DNA of 64,000 bases from contig DATNEW010000040.1 of assembly GCA_035606695.1 (NCBI GenBank), positions 1-64,000 on the forward strand, given 5' to 3'. Source of the stretch: Gemmatimonadaceae bacterium (GTDB taxonomy: Bacteria; Gemmatimonadota; Gemmatimonadetes; Gemmatimonadales; Gemmatimonadaceae). Under the pieces are notes generated by a model. That model was not told where the DNA came from and did no database searches. It saw only the letters and a program-made list of their open reading frames with translations. The position numbers and the translations under genes were made by a program. Positions 13,015-61,283 of the stretch are shown here, piece after piece (position 1 is the stretch's first letter; each line of letters begins with the position of its first letter).

Positions 13015-14162
13015 CAGAACGACCTCGGCAGCCCGAGCACGTGCTCGGCGACATACGAAAGAATCAGATTCGTCGAGATCGGCGCCACCTGATACAACCG
13101 CGTCTCGCGAAACTTGCGCTCGACGTCGAACTCCGCCGCGAATCCAAAGCCGCCATGCGTCTGGAGGCACACGTTCGCAGCTTCCCATGACGCTTTCGCC
13201 GCGAGATACTTCGCCATGTTCGCCTCGGCGCCGCAGGGCTCGCCGGCGTCGAAGAGCTCGCACGCTTTCCAGCGCATGAGATTCGCCGCCTCGACTTCGA
13301 TGTAACTCTCGGCGATCGGAAATTGCACGCCCTGATTGCGCCCGATCGGCCGGTCGAACACGACTCGCTCCGACGCATAGTGCGTCGCGCGATCGACAAA
13401 CCAGTATCCGTCACCGATGCATTCGGCCGCGATGAGCGTCCGCTCGGCGTTCAAGCCGTCGAGGATGTAGCGAAATCCTTTGCCTTCCTCGCCAATCCGA
13501 TTTGCCGCCGGAATCTCCACGTCCTCGAAGAACGCCTCGCTCGTCTCGTGATTCACCATGTTGCGAATCGGCTTGAGCGTGAGCCCGGCTCCAAGCGCGG
13601 CCTTGATGTCCACGATGAAAAGAGAAAGCCCCTCGGTTTTGCGCTGCGTCTCGGCGAGCAGCGTCGTGCGCGCGAGCAGAATCATCAAGTCGGAATGCTG
13701 CGCGCGCGACATCCACACCTTCTGGCCGTTGACGATGTACGAATCGCCGCGCCGCACCGCGGTCGTCTTGGTCTTCGTCGTGTCGGTGCCGGTCGTCGGT
13801 TCGGTGACGCCCATCGACTGCAGCCGAAGCTCGCCACGAGCGATGCGCGGCAGATATTCGCGTTTCTGCGCGTCGGATCCGTGCCGCAGCACCGTGCCCA
13901 TGTTGTAAAGCTGCCCATGACATGCGCCGGCGTTCGCGCCGCTGCGATTGATCTCCTCCATGATGACCGAAGCTTCGGCAAGCCCGAGCCCCGCGCCGTC
14001 GTACTCCTGCGGAATGAGCGCCGCGAGCCAGCCGGCCTTCGTCAGCGCATCGACAAATTCTTCGGGGTACGCCCGCGCCTCGTCCACGCGCTGCCAGTAG
14101 GCCGAGGGAAATTCGGCGCACAGGGCGCGAACCGGTTGTCGTATGTCTTCGTAGTCAGTCAT
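13014..14162 (-). CDS. Acyl-CoA dehydrogenase of the itaconate-type cluster
   Basis: A 382-residue acyl-CoA dehydrogenase with all three family domains: N-terminal helices (GWLAALIPQEYDGAGLGLAE), the middle beta domain with FAD-binding VTEPTTGTDTTKTKT and KVWMSRA, and the C-terminal helices (QTHGGFGFAAEFDVERKFR). The common catalytic position near the end reads LYQVAP rather than YEGT, so the usual Glu is Gln; a Glu in the helix-G position (LNAERT), used by isovaleryl-CoA dehydrogenase, is present. Substrate unknown; it may handle a branched C5 acyl-CoA linked to itaconate metabolism. The start sits in a 23-bp tandem duplication described separately. First gene of the leftward operon. Confidence 0.88.
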   Translation of the reverse strand: MTDYEDIRQPVRALCAEFPSAYWQRVDEARAYPEEFVDALTKAGWLAALIPQEYDGAGLGLAEASVIMEEINRSGANAGACHGQLYNMGTVLRHGSDAQKREYLPRIARGELRLQSMGVTEPTTGTDTTKTKTTAVRRGDSYIVNGQKVWMSRAQHSDLMILLARTTLLAETQRKTEGLSLFIVDIKAALGAGLTLKPIRNMVNHETSEAFFEDVEIPAANRIGEEGKGFRYILDGLNAERTLIAAECIGDGYWFVDRATHYASERVVFDRPIGRNQGVQFPIAESYIEVEAANLMRWKACELFDAGEPCGAEANMAKYLAAKASWEAANVCLQTHGGFGFAAEFDVERKFRETRLYQVAPISTNLILSYVAEHVLGLPRSF

Positions 14163-14214
14163 TCCGAGTCCTCGTAATCAGTCATTCCGAGTCCTCGTAA
14201 TCAGTCATTCCGAG
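14150..14214. repeat. 23-bp tandem duplication of a gene start
   Basis: Two full units and one partial unit of 23 bp (14150, 14173, 14196) share the core CAGTCATTCCGAGTCCTCGT. On the minus strand each begins ATGACTGA(T/C)TACGA(G/A)GA. The two upstream ATGs each open an eight-codon frame (MTDYEDSE) whose TGA overlaps the next ATG; the third ATG starts the acyl-CoA dehydrogenase. The outermost unit runs into the dispersed repeat at 14204. Confidence 0.85.
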
Positions 14215-14332
14215 CCGAAGGCGAGGAATCTTTCGTCCAGATAGAGTGGTCGATGAAGAATCTACGGCCCTCTACGCGAGACGATAGATTCCTCGCTACG
14301 CTCGGAATGACAGCGCTACGCTCGGAATAACA
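14204..14332. repeat. Dispersed palindromic repeat filling a divergent promoter region
   Basis: The left arm 14204-14230 (GTCATTCCGAGCCGAAGGCG...) pairs with 14287-14311 (...GCTACGCTCGGAATGAC). A second right half-copy follows at 14312-14331. It is a member of the same family as 9211 and 15948. Together with the 23-bp duplication it occupies practically the whole 175-bp gap between the divergent starts at 14162 and 14338, so any promoters for the two catabolic transcripts lie in or next to repeat DNA. Confidence 0.8.
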
Positions 14333-14337
14333 GGCTC

Positions 14338-54619: not shown

Positions 54620-54997
54620 GGCCGGGATCGAATGCCGATCTGCCGAGATCGCATTGTAGCTTGGCGAGACCGTTTGATTCCTTCGCGAGAGCGCTTGCTG
54701 GCTTGGACAGGGCGCTCGCTCGCTTGGCTAGATCGCTCGATCGTTTCGCGAGATGCCTTGCTCACGCGGCGCGACCCATTGCTTTCCTGGCGCGACCGCT
54801 TGCTCGTCCGACGCGACCGCTTGCTGGCGCGGAGCCACGACTTGATCTCGCGGCGAGATGCCTTGCCCGCGCGGCGCGACGACATCGCACCTCCGCGAGC
54901 TCGCATGCGACTGCGGCGCGACGATAGGCCTGACTGACCCGCTCACGTTGCCGCTCCACGAGATCACTCAATAGCTCGCCGAGATGACGTACGCCAT
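54620..54997. repeat. 18-unit 21-bp tandem repeat
   Basis: Eighteen consecutive units of exactly 21 bp from 54620 to 54997, degenerate, with a core like GGCGCGACCGCTTGCTNGC. Every frame in both directions therefore shows a seven-residue period (for example RDRLLxR on the plus strand, KRSRQxS on the minus strand). No frame has a convincing ribosome site, so coding is uncertain. With the surrounding DNA (54397-55218) it forms an 822-bp stretch without a confident gene; the last 130 bp are strongly pyrimidine-rich on the plus strand. Confidence 0.85.
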
Positions 54998-55218: not shown

Positions 55219-57186
55219 ATGCGAACGCGATTCACCGCAGCCGCCTTTCCGCTCGCGATCGTACTCTCGGCCGCCTCCGGCTTCACCTCCGCTGCGGCCC
55301 AATCGGCGCCGCCGCCCCAGACCCAACTCATCGACGTCCTTCCGCCGTCGACAAGCGCCACACAACTAGCGCTCACCGCCGACGCCCAGCGGGTGTACTA
55401 TGGCGACTCTACGCGCGCCCTCTGGTTTTACGATCGCGGCACGAAGCGCACCGTCCCGCTCGCCCCGGGCGAAGTATTCGATCTCACGCTGTCGCCGCGC
55501 GCTGACGCCCTCGCCTACGCACGCGCGACCCTGAGTGGCGCGGCCGAGCACTACATCTATGTACTGCCGCTCGATGCGCGGACGGGCCTTCCATCGGGCC
55601 CGGAACGCCGCGTGAGCGTCACGCCGGGCGATGCGCCCGCCATCGCGCCCGACGGAAAGTCGTTGGCGTTCGCGCGCGACGACGCAAGCGGTGTCAGTCA
55701 AAGCGTCGCTGTTATAGAACTTGGATCGCTCGCATCGATGACCGGCCGCGTTACCGAGCGCACGCTCGCCGGCTCACTGCACTCGAGCATCAGCAACATC
55801 CGCTGGTCGCCCGACGGCCAATCCATCTACTTCGGCGTCAATCCGCCGGTGCCATGCAATCCGGATTGGAGTTGCCTCGAGCTCAAGCCCGAGTTCGTTC
55901 AGAGATCCGGCACGCTCGAGCGGGTGTCGCTGGCGAGCGGGAAGATCGACGTCGTGACGTCGCCGGTCGCCAACGGGTGGCCGGGCCTCTCCGCCGACGG
56001 ATCGCTGCTCGCCTTCAGCGATTCGAGTTTTCCGCCGAACCTCGTCGTCGCGAACACCGACGGCCGCGTTCTGCGCACGGTCGCCGTGGCGCGGGGCCAG
56101 ACCGTCGAAGGGTGGCTCGCCGCGTCGACTTTACTGTTCTCTGATCGAGGTGACGTCCAGCGCCTGCGCAGCTTCTCGATCGCCGACGGTAGCACTCACC
56201 TCGTTGCGGACAGCCTGGCCTCGATCGCGGATCCGCTCGCGTCGCCCGACGGAACGATGATGGATTTCGTCACCTGTGCCGCCGGCCGCTGCGAGATGCG
56301 CATTCAGCACGCCGACGGATCGTCGCCGCGGACAATCGCGCTGCCCGACACCTACCGCGGATTCGGCGCGTGGTCGCCCGACGCGAAGCACATCGCCTAC
56401 TTCGGCGACGCAGGAACGTCGGGCGAGCTGCACCCGAGTATCGTCGACGTCGCCGCCGGCAGCGTCAAGACATTCGACGCCGCGCGCGCCAATGCGTGGG
56501 CCCTGTCGTGGACCGACGACTCGCGCGCGATCACGCTTTCCCTCGTGATCGGCGGAGCGGGTGCCACTCGGCGCCTCTCGCTCGAGCGCATCGCGCTCGA
56601 CGGGTCGGCACAGTTCACTCGCGAGCTGCCGCTTGGCAAGACGCCGAGTGTCGGTCGGGCCGTCGACATGACGTCGGCGGTGACGATTCGCGGCACCGAG
56701 ATCCAACGCGCCGCATTCGATGGCGATTCAGTGGTGTCGACGCTGCTGCCGAAAGTGTCGGCGCGCTATCTCGGCTGGTTCGCCGTCTCTGCGGATCGAC
56801 AGCGGTTCGTCTTTCGTCGCACGACCGATTCCTCGAGCGACGAGCCCAGGATTCTGGAAATCGTCAACCGCGACGGCAGCGGTCGTGTGACCATCCAGCT
56901 TCCGTTCATACTCGTCAACGGCACGACGACCATCCAATTCCTCCCCGGCGGCGCACAGCTCCTCGTCGAGGGCTTCTCGGACGATGTGGACGGCGTCGGC
57001 GTCTATGTGATCGACATCGCGACGAAATCAGCGAAGCGCGTGCTTGCGATTCCGGGCCGCGTCTTCACCCGCGAGCTGTCGCTGTCACCCGACGGCCGCA
57101 CGATCTTCTATGTCACCAACGAACGCTCGACGAGCCGAGTGTTCACGATGGACCTCTCGTCGCTGCGCGATGATCACAAACACTAA
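55219..57186 (+). CDS. Exported TolB/PD40-type beta-propeller protein
   Basis: A 655-residue protein; ATG 55219 gives a signal peptide (FPLAIVLSAASGFTSAAAQ). The long in-frame reading from 55000 is through non-coding DNA. WD40-like PD40 blades recur: DLTLSPRADALAYARATL, DAPAIAPDGKSLAFARDD, SNIRWSPDGQSIYFGVNP, WPGLSADGSLLAFSDSSF, GFGAWSPDAKHIAYFGD, and at the end LSLSPDGRTIFYVTNERS. No peptidase domain is attached. Such propellers bind partners or cell-wall ligands in the periplasm. The next gene follows by one base and encodes a related propeller, so they are an operon. Confidence 0.88.
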   Translation: MRTRFTAAAFPLAIVLSAASGFTSAAAQSAPPPQTQLIDVLPPSTSATQLALTADAQRVYYGDSTRALWFYDRGTKRTVPLAPGEVFDLTLSPRADALAYARATLSGAAEHYIYVLPLDARTGLPSGPERRVSVTPGDAPAIAPDGKSLAFARDDASGVSQSVAVIELGSLASMTGRVTERTLAGSLHSSISNIRWSPDGQSIYFGVNPPVPCNPDWSCLELKPEFVQRSGTLERVSLASGKIDVVTSPVANGWPGLSADGSLLAFSDSSFPPNLVVANTDGRVLRTVAVARGQTVEGWLAASTLLFSDRGDVQRLRSFSIADGSTHLVADSLASIADPLASPDGTMMDFVTCAAGRCEMRIQHADGSSPRTIALPDTYRGFGAWSPDAKHIAYFGDAGTSGELHPSIVDVAAGSVKTFDAARANAWALSWTDDSRAITLSLVIGGAGATRRLSLERIALDGSAQFTRELPLGKTPSVGRAVDMTSAVTIRGTEIQRAAFDGDSVVSTLLPKVSARYLGWFAVSADRQRFVFRRTTDSSSDEPRILEIVNRDGSGRVTIQLPFILVNGTTTIQFLPGGAQLLVEGFSDDVDGVGVYVIDIATKSAKRVLAIPGRVFTRELSLSPDGRTIFYVTNERSTSRVFTMDLSSLRDDHKH

Positions 57187-57187
57187 T

Positions 57188-58510
57188 ATGACAACTCACA
57201 AGCGCTGGCTCATCGCCCCACTCGCGCTACTCGGCGCCGCCGGCCGGCCGGTGCCAACCGTGCCGCCGACGCCTGTGTCTGGGCCGCAGTACGCGCACAT
57301 CTACACGCTCCGCCCCAAGGAAGGCGTGTTCGCCTACGCGCGGATCTCGCCCGACGGGCGCACGCTCGTGTACGCGAGCGAGCAGTCGGACGCGCGGCAT
57401 CCGAGAGGCATCCGGACGCAGGAGACGGTCGTCGACCTCGCGACGAAGAAGGTGGTGTACACCGAGGGCGGCATCGACGCGTACTGGTCGATCGACGGCA
57501 CGCGAATCATCTACTCCGGCACGAACGGCGTGAGCATTCGCGACATGAAGACGGGAACCGTCGCCGGCAACGTCGCCCCGAACGGGCTCGGCGACTACTA
57601 CAGCTGGGCGCGCCGCGATGGGAAGGATCTCATCATGACGATCGACAGCCATTACTACTATTTGAATAACGGCAAGGCCGTGCTGCCGTATGCGACGGTC
57701 AAAAAATGCGACAAGATCGGCACGGGCGAGCGCCCGCTGATCTCGAAGGACGGCATGCGCATCACGACGTTCGTCGACGGCAACATCGTCGTGCGCAACG
57801 TCGACAACTGCGACGACATCTTCGACACGGGCATCAAGGGCGCGAAGGCGGACTTCTCGTGGGACGGCCGATACATCGCCTTCCACTCGCTCAAGCCTCA
57901 AGGGTCGGGCTACGACATTCAGATCGTCGACCTCGAGAAGCGCACGATCCGCACGCTGCCGGGACTCGGCGGATCGGCGCTGTTCCCGAGCTGGACGCGC
58001 GACGGCCGGCTCGAGTTCCGCTATGACGGCCCGGACTATCGCGGCTTCGTGCTCGCGAGCAACGTGCTCGACGTCCCTGCGCGTCCGCTGCCCGCGGCGG
58101 CCGAGCCGTTGCCGTCGCATCGCACGTGGAACGACATCTTTCCTGGGATGGAGCGGCAGCAGCATCACCTCAATGTCGTGTTGATCTGGGCGCCGTGGAG
58201 CACGCACAGCCAGATCGCGTTCACTGAGCTCGACCAGGCGCGCGATTATTTCGCGCGGGAGCGAGCGGACGTGTCGATCGCGGCGGCGGCGGATCCGGGG
58301 AGCGCGGAGCAAGAGATCGCGAGGCAGTGGGCGGCGTTTGAGACGAGTGTGCCGAGGATTCCCCTGACGTCGCGCGGGCTTGGGTTGACGCAGGCGAGGA
58401 ATCAGATGCCGACGACGCTGCTGTTTCGGGATGGAGTGCTGGTCGGCGAGAAGCTCGGGGCGCAGACGGCGGAGCAGCTGCAAGGGTGGATTGAGAGGGA
58501 AGGGAGGTAG
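57188..58510 (+). CDS. TolB-like propeller with redox-dead thioredoxin domain
   Basis: A 440-residue exported protein starting one base after the previous stop. Residues about 35-320 are PD40-type blades (YARISPDGRTLVYASEQ, ADFSWDGRYIAFHSLKPQ, FPSWTRDGRLEFRYDG). The C-terminal 110 residues have a thioredoxin fold: HLNVVLIWAPWSTHSQIAFT, then MPTTLLFRDGVLVGEKLGAQ. The active site reads WAPWSTHSQ, so both cysteines of WCxxC are Ser; thiol chemistry is impossible. It probably works as a binding domain. Immediately downstream lies the inverted-array element. Confidence 0.88.
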   Translation: MTTHKRWLIAPLALLGAAGRPVPTVPPTPVSGPQYAHIYTLRPKEGVFAYARISPDGRTLVYASEQSDARHPRGIRTQETVVDLATKKVVYTEGGIDAYWSIDGTRIIYSGTNGVSIRDMKTGTVAGNVAPNGLGDYYSWARRDGKDLIMTIDSHYYYLNNGKAVLPYATVKKCDKIGTGERPLISKDGMRITTFVDGNIVVRNVDNCDDIFDTGIKGAKADFSWDGRYIAFHSLKPQGSGYDIQIVDLEKRTIRTLPGLGGSALFPSWTRDGRLEFRYDGPDYRGFVLASNVLDVPARPLPAAAEPLPSHRTWNDIFPGMERQQHHLNVVLIWAPWSTHSQIAFTELDQARDYFARERADVSIAAAADPGSAEQEIARQWAAFETSVPRIPLTSRGLGLTQARNQMPTTLLFRDGVLVGEKLGAQTAEQLQGWIEREGR

Positions 58511-58518
58511 GAGAGCAA

Positions 58519-58608
58519 TCGAAAGAGCGAACCGAAAGAGCGAACCGAAAGAGCGAACCGAAACGGCGAACCGAAAAGGCGAACCGAAAGGGCGAACGAA
58601 AAGAGCGG
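58519..58608. repeat. Left 13-bp repeat array of an inverted pair
   Basis: Seven head-to-tail units of 13 bp (the last partial) with consensus CCGAAAGAGCGAA, 58519 to 58608. It begins nine bases after the stop of the propeller gene. The reverse complement of the unit forms the array at 59138-59215, on the other side of the four-helix-bundle gene. Confidence 0.9.
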
Positions 58609-58676
58609 AAGCAAAAAGGCGACGGCGGAAGTCGAATGATGACGGGCCACGGCGCTCGGATGCATAGCATTCCGCC

Positions 58677-59129
58677 ATGCCATCACCAAACGGAGTGCGC
58701 GCGTGGCAGGCCGCGATCCAGGTCGCCGAGCGAACGCGCCAGCTTGTCGCCCTGTTCCCAAGGCGCGGCTACGCGGACCTGCGCGATCAGATGACCCGGT
58801 CCTCGGAGTCGATCGGCAATAACATTGCCGAGGGGCGCGGCTCGAGCTTCGAGCGCGAGTACATCAAGTATCTGGACACCGCGGCGCGTTCCGCGAACGA
58901 GTTGACCTCGCAGCTCGTGACGGTGATGGAGTACGGCATCGTGCCGAGGTCGCTGGCGTTCCATTTGAACGGCACCGTGATTTGTACGAGGCGCATGATC
59001 GAGTCGCTGCGCGACGTCGTGCAGGCGAATTACGAGGCGAGGGAACGTCAGCGCCGCGCTGACGCCAGGAGCCGGCGTAAGGTGCCCAAGGGGAAGCGAG
59101 CGAAGAAGCGAGTGAAGAAGAAAGGTTGA
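58677..59129 (+). CDS. Four-helix bundle protein (S23/Avd-like)
   Basis: A 150-residue protein of the TIGR02436 four-helix-bundle family, also called 23S rRNA intervening-sequence protein: VRAWQAAIQVAERTRQLVAL, LRDQMTRSSESIGNNIAEGR, EYIKYLDTAARSANELTSQL and the basic tail KVPKGKRAKKRVKKKG. Relatives occur in rRNA intervening sequences and as Avd in diversity-generating retroelements, binding RNA. Here it is not in an rRNA gene. It lies between two long inverted arrays (58519-58608 and 59138-59215), inserted between convergent genes. A mobile RNA or DNA element is suspected. Confidence 0.9.
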   Translation: MPSPNGVRAWQAAIQVAERTRQLVALFPRRGYADLRDQMTRSSESIGNNIAEGRGSSFEREYIKYLDTAARSANELTSQLVTVMEYGIVPRSLAFHLNGTVICTRRMIESLRDVVQANYEARERQRRADARSRRKVPKGKRAKKRVKKKG

Positions 59130-59137
59130 GAAAGGCG

Positions 59138-59215
59138 TTCGCCGTTTCGGTTCGCCGTTTCGGTTCGCTCTTTCGGTTCGCCGTTTCGGTTCGCCTTTTC
59201 GGTTCGCTCTTACCG
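59138..59215. repeat. Right 13-bp repeat array of the inverted pair
   Basis: Six units with consensus TTCGCCGTTTCGG (variant TTCGCTCTTTCGG is the exact reverse complement of the left unit). It starts eight bases after the four-helix-bundle gene and overlaps the stop codon of the convergent hydrolase gene (59210). A transcript across both arrays would fold into a long stem with the gene in the loop. Confidence 0.9.
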
Positions 59216-60661
59216 CCCCCGCCGCCGAAACGCCCGCTCTCCCGTGTATAGATACTTGACGCCCCCACTCGCGTCCCGAATCACGGTAAACCGAATCGTC
59301 CCGGTCGCCTTCGTTTCGTCATTCGCAAACCGAAGCTCGAGCGCATTCCACCCAACGATGCGCCCCGATCCGCGCAGCGTTCTCTCTGTCGTATCACGAT
59401 CGACGATCTCGAGCGCGTCACCACCGCCGCTGCGCGCGCTGACGGTGATCACGCGCGTACCATTGAGATAGCGCCCAACAAGTTCCGCCGGCAGAAGAAC
59501 CCGCCCCGTCGTATCGACAGGCGGCGGCTGCCGCCCACCAGCTCCGATCGCCTCAGTGGCAGCACGCTGCGTCGCCGTCGGCGTCGCATCGAGCCGGTTC
59601 TCTAATACAACGAACGCACGATTCACCGTCGGCGCCATCGCCACCCGCGAGCCGAAGCCGTTCATCCGCCCATTCTTGCTCCACAGCAGTACGCCCCCCT
59701 CGTTGACGATCACGCCTAATCCGCCAAAGACGTTCGTCGCTCCGGGAAACGCCATGCGCGGCTTCACAATTGTCTCAATGACCGCGCGATCGATCGCCTG
59801 CCGTCCGTCGATCATGCCGTGATTCATCACCGCGATCGCGAGGCGCGCAATGTCCTCCGCGCTCGCCCACAAAAAGGTGGACGGCAGATGTCGCGCATCC
59901 GTGAGGACGGGTCGCACCAACTGCGGCGGCGCGCCGACAGCGCCGATGTGCCCTTGCGAGAACGGCCACGTGACCGCGCTCTGTGTCGCGAACGTTGCGC
60001 GCGTCATGCCCACCGGCTGCAACACTCGCTCCGCTACGAGATCCGTGTAGCGCTTGCCGCTCGCCGCGGCGATGACGGCGCCCGCGAGGATGTAGCCCGG
60101 ATTCGAGTACGAGTGAACGTCGCCCGGCTCCGTGAACAGCATCGCGTCCGTGCACGCGCGAACGGAGCGAACGAGATCGTCTTCGTTCTCGTCTTCGTCG
60201 ATCGGCGTTGCCGTGATGATCTCCGCGACACCCGCCGTGTGCTCGAGGAGCTGCGCCAGCGTGACTTTGCCAAGTCGTGGCGACAGGCCTTTCATGTATC
60301 GCGCGATGGGCGCGTCGAGCGAGATGCCGCGCGCCTTGGCTTCGGCGACGACGGTGATCGCGGTGACGAGCTTCGTGATCGAGCCCACGCGAAAGAGCAT
60401 GTCGGGCGTGACGGGCGCGCCGGTCTCGACGTTCGACGTGCCGTACCCTTTCGCGTACACGATGCGCCCACTGTCGACGAACGCCACGGCGATGCCGGGA
60501 ATGCCGAGGGTTTGCATGTCGCGCGCGGCCGCGCGATCGACCGCGGCGAACAGGCTGTCGCGCGTGGGCATCCGCTGCGCGCCGACGGCGTGCATTGCGG
60601 CAACCGTCGTTGCGGTCGCCATGACAGCGATGCGAGGAAGGGAGATCTTCACGACACTCAT
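59210..60661 (-). CDS. Class C beta-lactamase-like serine hydrolase
   Basis: A 483-residue exported enzyme; ATG 60661 (MSVVKISLPRIAVMATATTV) gives the signal peptide; longer readings to 61264 are spurious. Motifs: SITK (in FRVGSITKLVTAITVV), YSN (in VHSYSNPGYILAG) and WSKNGRMNGFG in the KTG position. A C-terminal beta domain of about 100 residues follows (VLLPAELVGRYLNGTRVITV). It is probably a peptidase or esterase of the periplasm, related to but distinct from the enzyme at 48481. The final codon lies in the right repeat array. Confidence 0.9.
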   Translation of the reverse strand: MSVVKISLPRIAVMATATTVAAMHAVGAQRMPTRDSLFAAVDRAAARDMQTLGIPGIAVAFVDSGRIVYAKGYGTSNVETGAPVTPDMLFRVGSITKLVTAITVVAEAKARGISLDAPIARYMKGLSPRLGKVTLAQLLEHTAGVAEIITATPIDEDENEDDLVRSVRACTDAMLFTEPGDVHSYSNPGYILAGAVIAAASGKRYTDLVAERVLQPVGMTRATFATQSAVTWPFSQGHIGAVGAPPQLVRPVLTDARHLPSTFLWASAEDIARLAIAVMNHGMIDGRQAIDRAVIETIVKPRMAFPGATNVFGGLGVIVNEGGVLLWSKNGRMNGFGSRVAMAPTVNRAFVVLENRLDATPTATQRAATEAIGAGGRQPPPVDTTGRVLLPAELVGRYLNGTRVITVSARSGGGDALEIVDRDTTERTLRGSGRIVGWNALELRFANDETKATGTIRFTVIRDASGGVKYLYTGERAFRRRGR

Positions 60662-60715
60662 ATTGCGCCCCTCGGCCACAGTGCCGCAACTCGGCCCGCA
60701 TGCTAGTATCGAGGC

Positions 60716-61198
60716 ATGCCCAGCATGTCCTTCCGCCGAAAGCTTCGCGAGTGGCTGCTCCGATACGGGCCCGCGGAACTGGCCGGCCTGACCGTCGCAT
60801 TCATTGCATCGGTCATCGTGCGGCGATCGATGCACAGCGCGATCGCGGCCGGCTACGCCGCGGCGTGGGGCGAGACCATCGGCTACGTGCTGATGATGGT
60901 CGTGCGTGACTACACGGCCGAGGTGCACGCGTCTCCGCAGGTCGAACGACGGCAACACGTGCGGCACGCAAGCAACGTCGCCACGGGGTTGCTCGCTGAG
61001 TTTGGGCCCGCCGGCGTTATCGATACGTTCGTGACCCGCCCGCTCGCGATGACGCTCGGAATTCGGTTCGCCGGGCCGGTATTCGGCCTCGTGATCGGCA
61101 AGCTCGCCGCCGACGCCGTGTTCTACGCACCGGTCATCTACATGTACGAACGGCGCAAACATCGGCGCGCGCGCGCAAAGCGCACAGACGCCGACTGA
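60716..61198 (+). CDS. Small membrane protein
   Basis: A 160-residue protein from ATG 60716. It has an N-terminal amphipathic part (RRKLREWLLRYGPAELAG), membrane segments (LTVAFIASVIVRRSMHSAI, GETIGYVLMMVV, FAGPVFGLVIGKLAADAVFY) and a basic tail (YERRKHRRARAKRTDAD). No family I can name. Divergent from the hydrolase gene, 54 bp apart. Function unknown. Confidence 0.75.
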   Translation: MPSMSFRRKLREWLLRYGPAELAGLTVAFIASVIVRRSMHSAIAAGYAAAWGETIGYVLMMVVRDYTAEVHASPQVERRQHVRHASNVATGLLAEFGPAGVIDTFVTRPLAMTLGIRFAGPVFGLVIGKLAADAVFYAPVIYMYERRKHRRARAKRTDAD

Positions 61199-61283
61199 CA
61201 TTGCACCCCGCGTCCCTCGCGGGCCGCGCGTCCCAGCCGTAACTTTTCCTGCCCGCTCGGCCACGCCCCGCAGCCTGACCCTG

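What the first reader, a model, noticed from the sequence alone, without database searches (positions are those of the whole stretch)
58519..59215. Four-helix-bundle gene between inverted 13-bp arrays: suspected mobile element
The left array (CCGAAAGAGCGAA, seven units) and the right array (reverse complement, six units) enclose a TIGR02436 gene exactly, between convergent genes. Intervening sequences in 23S rRNA are built in a similar way, with a hairpin stem and this type of protein in the loop, but no rRNA is here. It could be an RNA-based or hairpin-based element that uses the bundle protein.
Basis: partly seen in the sequence, partly recalled or inferred. Interest (0 to 1): 0.75.

Follow-up and report, generated by a model that had tools for sequence, protein, structure and literature searches.

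The report
Hairpin mobile element with S23-family gene
A small gene for a ring-forming four-helix protein sits inside a mobile DNA hairpin with ends built of short tandem repeats; the same layout recurs with related genes across bacteria and archaea, and gene-less hairpins with matching repeats are scattered through the genomes that carry the gene, so the protein probably recognises and spreads these repeats, whose origin has been unexplained.

Summary
A PF05635/TIGR02436 gene (58677-59129) lies between 13-bp tandem arrays, 58512-58607 and 59137-59211, that are reverse complements. They fill the gap between two convergent genes.

It is one case of a general rule. In this bacterial family 98 of 120 such genes have locus-specific inverted arms (permutation control). 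Loci from many phyla and archaea show the same, mostly with 7-nt units.

Two copies in one genome match from arm to arm with unrelated flanks; a sister species lacks the element at both sites. Gene-less hairpins with the same unit are dispersed in the same genome and nearly absent from congeners: 0 separated-arm hairpins in 520 kb of a relative with no such gene, 11 in 540 kb of a relative with eleven. Proteins of at least 55-60% identity share unit sequence even across phyla. The protein is under purifying selection (dN/dS 0.05-0.20).

Best reading: a REPIN/RAYT-like two-level mobile repeat system in which an S23-type (Avd-fold) pentamer replaces the transposase. No RAYT in 5 of 6 congeners; no reverse transcriptase in 8 of 12 genomes. 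The chemistry of movement is unknown. The Xanthomonas GGGAATC repeats appear to be one instance.

The parts
58512..58607 (+). left arm: tandem array, 13-bp unit (AGAGCGAACCGAA), 7.5 copies
   Evidence: pairs with the right arm
58608..58676 (+). spacer between left arm and start codon
   Evidence: sequence
58677..59129 (+). S23 / TIGR02436 four-helix-bundle gene, 150 aa
   Evidence: model pLDDT 94.6; fold match 2GSC
59137..59211 (-). right arm: tandem array, reverse complement of the left unit, 5.5 copies
57044..58510 (+). upstream neighbour ORF (PD40-like), whose stop abuts the left arm
59210..61264 (-). downstream convergent ORF with a beta-lactamase/serine-hydrolase domain, whose stop abuts the right arm; true start uncertain

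Best explanation
The feature is the gene-bearing ('master') form of a hairpin mobile element. It has two inverted arms of short tandem units, and its only gene encodes an S23-type four-helix-bundle protein whose homologues form pentameric rings. The protein most likely recognises the unit of its own arms, on DNA (cruciform or single-stranded hairpin). It promotes copying of the hairpin, with the gene and, in trans, without it, into intergenic sites beside gene ends. This gives each genome its own family of gene-less hairpins, in the way RAYTs are thought to serve REPINs. Slippage lengthens and changes the units. Exchange between the arms, or selection for pairing, keeps the two arms matched. 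Shown: the arms, their locus specificity, co-movement of arms and gene, absence from orthologous sites, gene-less copies tied to the resident unit, purifying selection on the protein, and unit-protein covariation. Inferred: binding of the unit by the protein, its causal role in spread, and use of host replication or repair for the chemistry.
For: Inverted arms in 98 of 120 family genes above the 99th percentile of permuted arms; median score 64 vs 22 permuted and 23 at random places. Phyla set: median 39 vs 20 permuted and 21 at nearby places. Arm-to-arm copy L087/L114 in one genome, 90% over 527 bp, unrelated flanks. Element absent at both orthologous sites in G060. Unit-by-genome matrix nearly diagonal. 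G048 (no S23) 0 separated-arm hairpins in 520 kb; G023 (11 S23) 11 in 540 kb, 5 matching own S23 arms, none matching 92 foreign arms. Unit similarity tracks protein identity, also between phyla: id >=0.60, cosine 0.24 vs 0.105 null, p=0.0002. dN/dS 0.05-0.20. Matched arm changes in orthologues, 24 of 25 double changes to the same base. Left arm G>C on the gene strand in 85 of 94 and 53 of 60. Xanthomonas S23 loci carry the GGGAATC unit that is dispersed 186 times in Xcc (PMC4692102). Y1 transposase absent in 5 of 6 congeners.
Against: No binding or movement assay. S23 proteins have no known catalytic activity and no target-site duplication was seen. At both sites lacking the element the relative carries other sequence (a 103-nt hairpin; a 55-bp GC-rich stretch), so replacement and independent insertion cannot be told apart. 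22 of 120 genes lack clear arms, including a syntenic, apparently vertical group. Transposases other than Y1 were not surveyed. Unit sharing at high protein identity could partly be common descent. The matched-change test is biased upward because the arms were chosen by their similarity. Most genomes are draft assemblies.
Confidence: 0.62

Rival explanations
1. An RNA-level element like the 23S rRNA intervening sequences: the transcript folds into a long stem, is cut by RNase III, and the protein binds the RNA or regulates its own mRNA through the purine-rich 5' arm.
For: Same protein family as rRNA IVS ORFs, and IVS stems are cut by RNase III (PMC4990558). The RNA folds far better than shuffles (z -9.85). 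The G-rich arm is always on the gene strand. Related Avd belongs to a ribonucleoprotein.
Against: Arm mismatches show no G-U over A-C excess (202:169, p=0.10; 40:51). Gene-less hairpins disperse without the gene. No rRNA here.
Confidence: 0.15
2. The hairpins are MITEs moved by an unrelated transposase, with the S23 gene as a passenger or an autoregulated cargo.
For: Gene-less copies greatly outnumber gene copies. The protein has no known catalytic fold.
Against: The same architecture recurs with this gene across phyla. Unit sequence follows the S23 protein, not only the host. Y1 transposase is absent from most congeners. The unit is genome-specific and follows resident S23 copies.
Confidence: 0.12
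3. Passive mutational dynamics: slippage and template switching build and homogenise palindromic arrays at gene ends, where they serve as terminators, and S23 genes are merely tolerated there.
For: Matched changes in the arms are expected from template switching. Position between convergent stops.
Against: Arm-to-arm transposed copy. Gene-less families with one shared unit at dozens of sites. No separated-arm hairpins in 520 kb of a congener that lacks S23.
Confidence: 0.07
4. A retroelement in which the S23 protein acts like Avd with a reverse transcriptase supplied in trans.
For: Fold and family relation to Avd (PMC10053308).
Against: No reverse transcriptase found in 8 of 12 genomes with S23 elements, including G038, which holds the recent duplicate; assemblies are drafts.
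Confidence: 0.04

Closest known systems
REPIN / RAYT system (PMC3116915)
   Same: Dispersed gene-less hairpins whose repeat matches the flanks of a resident gene; several distinct families per genome; gene and repeat appear to coevolve; intergenic.
   Different: Protein is an S23/Avd-fold four-helix bundle, not a Y1 HUH transposase; arms are mostly tandem arrays of 7-16 bp units; the gene-bearing form itself was copied between sites (L087/L114), unlike RAYTs, which that paper describes as single-copy.
23S rRNA intervening sequences with S23p ORF (e.g. Coxiella, PMC4990558)
   Same: Same protein family inside a hairpin; regarded as selfish elements.
   Different: Not in rRNA; arms are tandem arrays; many gene-less derivatives; no sign of RNA-level constraint.
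GGGAATC repeats of Xanthomonas and GGGGA(C/T)T repeats of Nostoc (PMC4692102)
   Same: Heptameric arrays, in 70-75 cases as convergent inverted pairs in Xanthomonas, a mean 28 nt after the 5' ORF; the S23 gene of four other Xanthomonas species has GGGAATC arms.
   Different: The paper proposes no mobile origin and names no associated gene; the link to the S23 gene comes from this work.
Avd of diversity-generating retroelements
   Same: Same fold, related family (PMC10053308).
   Different: Reverse transcriptase absent from most host genomes tested; template and variable repeats were not looked for systematically.

Membership tests
PF05635 / TIGR02436 (S23, 23S rRNA IVP) protein family | Profile match above the curated cut-off over the whole domain | tested here: met
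   fold match 2GSC
23S rRNA intervening sequence | Located inside an rRNA gene | tested here: not met
   no Rfam match in the window; lies between two protein genes
23S rRNA intervening sequence | Excision of the stem from the transcript by RNase III | not testable with these tools
   needs RNA data
REPIN/RAYT | Y1/HUH tyrosine transposase (RAYT) | tested here: not met
   PF01797 absent from G000 and from 4 of its 5 congeners; the element's own protein is S23-type
REPIN/RAYT | Inverted repeat doublets dispersed in the genome and matching the flanks of the master gene | tested here: met
Diversity-generating retroelement | Reverse transcriptase in the genome, next to the Avd-like gene | tested here: not met
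   absent in 8 of 12 genomes; the single hit in G000 is on another contig (C14)
Mobile element (general) | Same unit at different sites, and sites without it in a relative | tested here: met
   L087/L114; G060 lacks both. For the window copy itself inconclusive
Mobile element (general) | Target-site duplication or a defined target sequence | tested here: inconclusive
   no duplication seen; the orthologous sites hold other sequence

The most novel reading that the evidence does not exclude
S23-type four-helix-bundle pentamers are a previously unrecognised class of mobiliser with no known catalytic fold. They recognise short tandem repeat arms and disperse hairpin DNA in bacteria and archaea, and so account for many of the widespread heptameric repeats of unknown origin.
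Probability: 0.4. Interest if true: 0.93.

Novelty: new variant of a known kind. Interest (0 to 1): 0.82.

Why it matters
The S23 / four-helix-bundle family is very widespread and without known function, and heptameric repeats in bacterial genomes have been described without a cause. Linking the two gives both a testable role: a protein that specifies a repeat unit, and whose repeats populate its own genome. If true, it would be a mobile repeat system built on a fold not known to catalyse strand transfer, related to the accessory protein of diversity-generating retroelements.

Tried and rejected
RNA-level constraint, tested through G-U versus A-C mismatches between the arms: no signal. RAYT and reverse transcriptase as movers: mostly absent. 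The orthologous locus of the window element in G004 keeps only the upstream gene pair, so it is not a clean site without the element. The orthologous site of a gene-less hairpin (L258) in G060 was confounded by about 2.2 kb of other sequence. Density of tandem arrays alone does not separate genomes with and without S23 (24 vs 70 per Mb in one sample, but 48 vs 20 the other way for G048 vs G023); separated-arm hairpins do. Phage records hold no S23 relative at the threshold used. A first alignment of 27 proteins was too diverse for a collection scan. In one search the loci L032-L051 were not centred on the gene and were disregarded; one search replaced that analysis.

Full report
What is there. 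The window holds an S23 / 23S-rRNA-IVP type gene at 58677-59129 between two arrays of a 13-bp unit, 58512-58607 and 59137-59211, which are reverse complements of each other (88% over 83 columns). It is by far the strongest inverted repeat in the 64 kb, and as RNA it folds far better than shuffles (z = -9.85). The element fills the gap between two convergent ORFs, whose stops lie at 58510 and 59210. No known RNA family is in the window. A genome in the same taxonomic family contains a replicon of 1,106,233 bases with an S23 gene at the same place as Gemmatirosa kalamazoonensis record CP007129, so the host is probably a member of the Gemmatimonadaceae.

It is a rule, not a curiosity. The window genome has 4 such genes and its congeners 6-9 each; 47 of 59 family genomes have at least one. 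I oriented 120 distinct genes and compared each left flank with the reverse complement of its own right flank. The median score is 64, against 22 for arms of different loci and 23 for random genomic places; 98 of 120 exceed the 99th percentile of the permuted pairs. In loci fetched from many phyla, including ANME-1 archaea, the median is 39 against 20 permuted and 21 at nearby non-S23 places (loci); 58 of 73 score at least 30, the 95th percentile of nearby places. Cyanobacterial plasmid copies show the same, for example between ribonucleotide reductase genes and between cas6 and cas4. Where the left arm is clearly periodic, 7 nt is the commonest period in both sets. On the gene strand the left arm is G-rich in 85 of 94 and 53 of 60 decided cases.

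It moves as a unit. L087 and L114 are two copies in one genome (G038), 90% identical over 527 bp from arm to arm, with unrelated flanks. In the sister species G060 the flanks of both sites are adjacent without the element: 103 bp and 55 bp lie there instead of about 540 bp. At the first site G060 carries a different strong hairpin (z = -7.9). No target-site duplication was seen. Mobility of the class is therefore well supported, while the exact junction chemistry is not.

Gene-less relatives are tied to the resident gene. The arm of L114 occurs alone at about 100 matches in G038, many as inverted pairs; whole gene-less hairpins of about 130 bp are about 80% alike among copies. In the window genome the 13-bp unit recurs at several other places, one of them a complete gene-less hairpin (C13:69584-69724), and at none in five congeners; the unit of another of its S23 genes (L002) recurs at about 35 places there and at most once in the congeners. 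The reciprocal test with units from five congeners is nearly diagonal: the L012 unit at about 25 places in its own genome, the L017 unit at about 37, the L013 unit at 8, none of them in the window genome. One unit (L003) is shared with congener G004. In G048, which has no S23 gene, 520 kb hold no hairpin with separated arms; in its congener G023, with eleven S23 genes, 540 kb hold 11, of which 5 match arms of the six own S23 copies compared and none match any of 92 foreign arms.

The protein matters. dN/dS is 0.05-0.20 between pairs of arm-bearing copies. Arm-unit similarity rises with protein identity: at identity of at least 0.60 the 4-mer cosine is 0.356 against a null of 0.105, and still 0.240 when only pairs from different phyla are used (p = 0.0002; wider set). 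Examples: AGGATTG in Bacteroidota and Proteobacteria records, AGTAGTC in Firmicutes and Deltaproteobacteria records, GGTGGAC in Hydrogenedentota and Planctomycetota records. The phylum labels are those of the assemblies, many of them metagenome bins. At such protein divergence unconstrained non-coding arms should not be alignable (inference), so the unit appears to be specified by the protein. Between related copies, 24 of 25 positions changed in both arms changed to the same base; this test is biased upward because arms are chosen by similarity.

What it is not, or is not shown to be. Mismatches between arms do not favour G-U pairs, so RNA stem selection is unsupported. RAYT-type transposases are missing in 5 of the 6 genomes of the genus and reverse transcriptases in 8 of 12 genomes, including the one with the recent duplicate. 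The predicted structure (pLDDT 94.6) matches the pentameric XCC0516 (2GSC) and, more weakly, Avd (profile search). No catalytic function is known to me for this fold.

Link to published repeats. GGGAATC heptamers in Xanthomonas (186 arrays in Xcc, 70 convergent pairs, mean 28 nt after the 5' ORF) were described without a mechanism or an associated gene (PMC4692102). In four other Xanthomonas species the S23 gene carries GGGAATC-type arms, next to a gene pair that I read from the flanks as accB and accC; the Xcc locus itself was not checked. The protein's presence in cas loci was noted earlier (PMC3936711), and its relation to Avd too (PMC10053308). None of the papers found in the searchable library links the family to these arrays; subscription papers and preprints are largely outside it.

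Conclusion. The element works like a REPIN/RAYT pair (PMC3116915) but is not one: the defining transposase is absent and the protein belongs to another family. It resembles rRNA intervening sequences in protein and hairpin, but lies outside rRNA. I commit to a two-level hairpin mobile element specified by an S23-type protein (0.62). That the protein itself drives movement is inferred.

Noticed in passing
L045 (G000 C9), L034, L033, L037: An S23 gene without arms is conserved in synteny in four genomes of the genus (flanks 84-89% identical), dN/dS 0.09-0.12 in two pairs: possibly a domesticated copy.
   Followed up: partly
L297:874-1233: S23 gene with AGCTTTT-type heptad arms lies between cas6 and cas4 on a Pseudanabaena plasmid; this may explain the earlier report of the family in cas loci.
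   Followed up: no
L251 (G060 C107, reverse complement 1398-1500): A different strong hairpin (GGGATCGAC-type) sits where the sister species has the S23 element: a possible insertion hot spot.
   Followed up: partly
L284, L285, L289: Some gene-less elements carry an inner palindrome (AAGGGCGACGGAGAGATTCCGTCGCCCTT-like) between the arrays.
   Followed up: no
window 14145-14333: Three copies of a 23-bp unit (GTCCTCGTAATCAGTCATTCCGA) and a nearby 20-bp tandem repeat; a separate repeat family without a clear inverted partner.
   Followed up: no
window 54644-54880: Degenerate tandem repeats of 21-bp period just upstream of the PD40-like genes.
   Followed up: no
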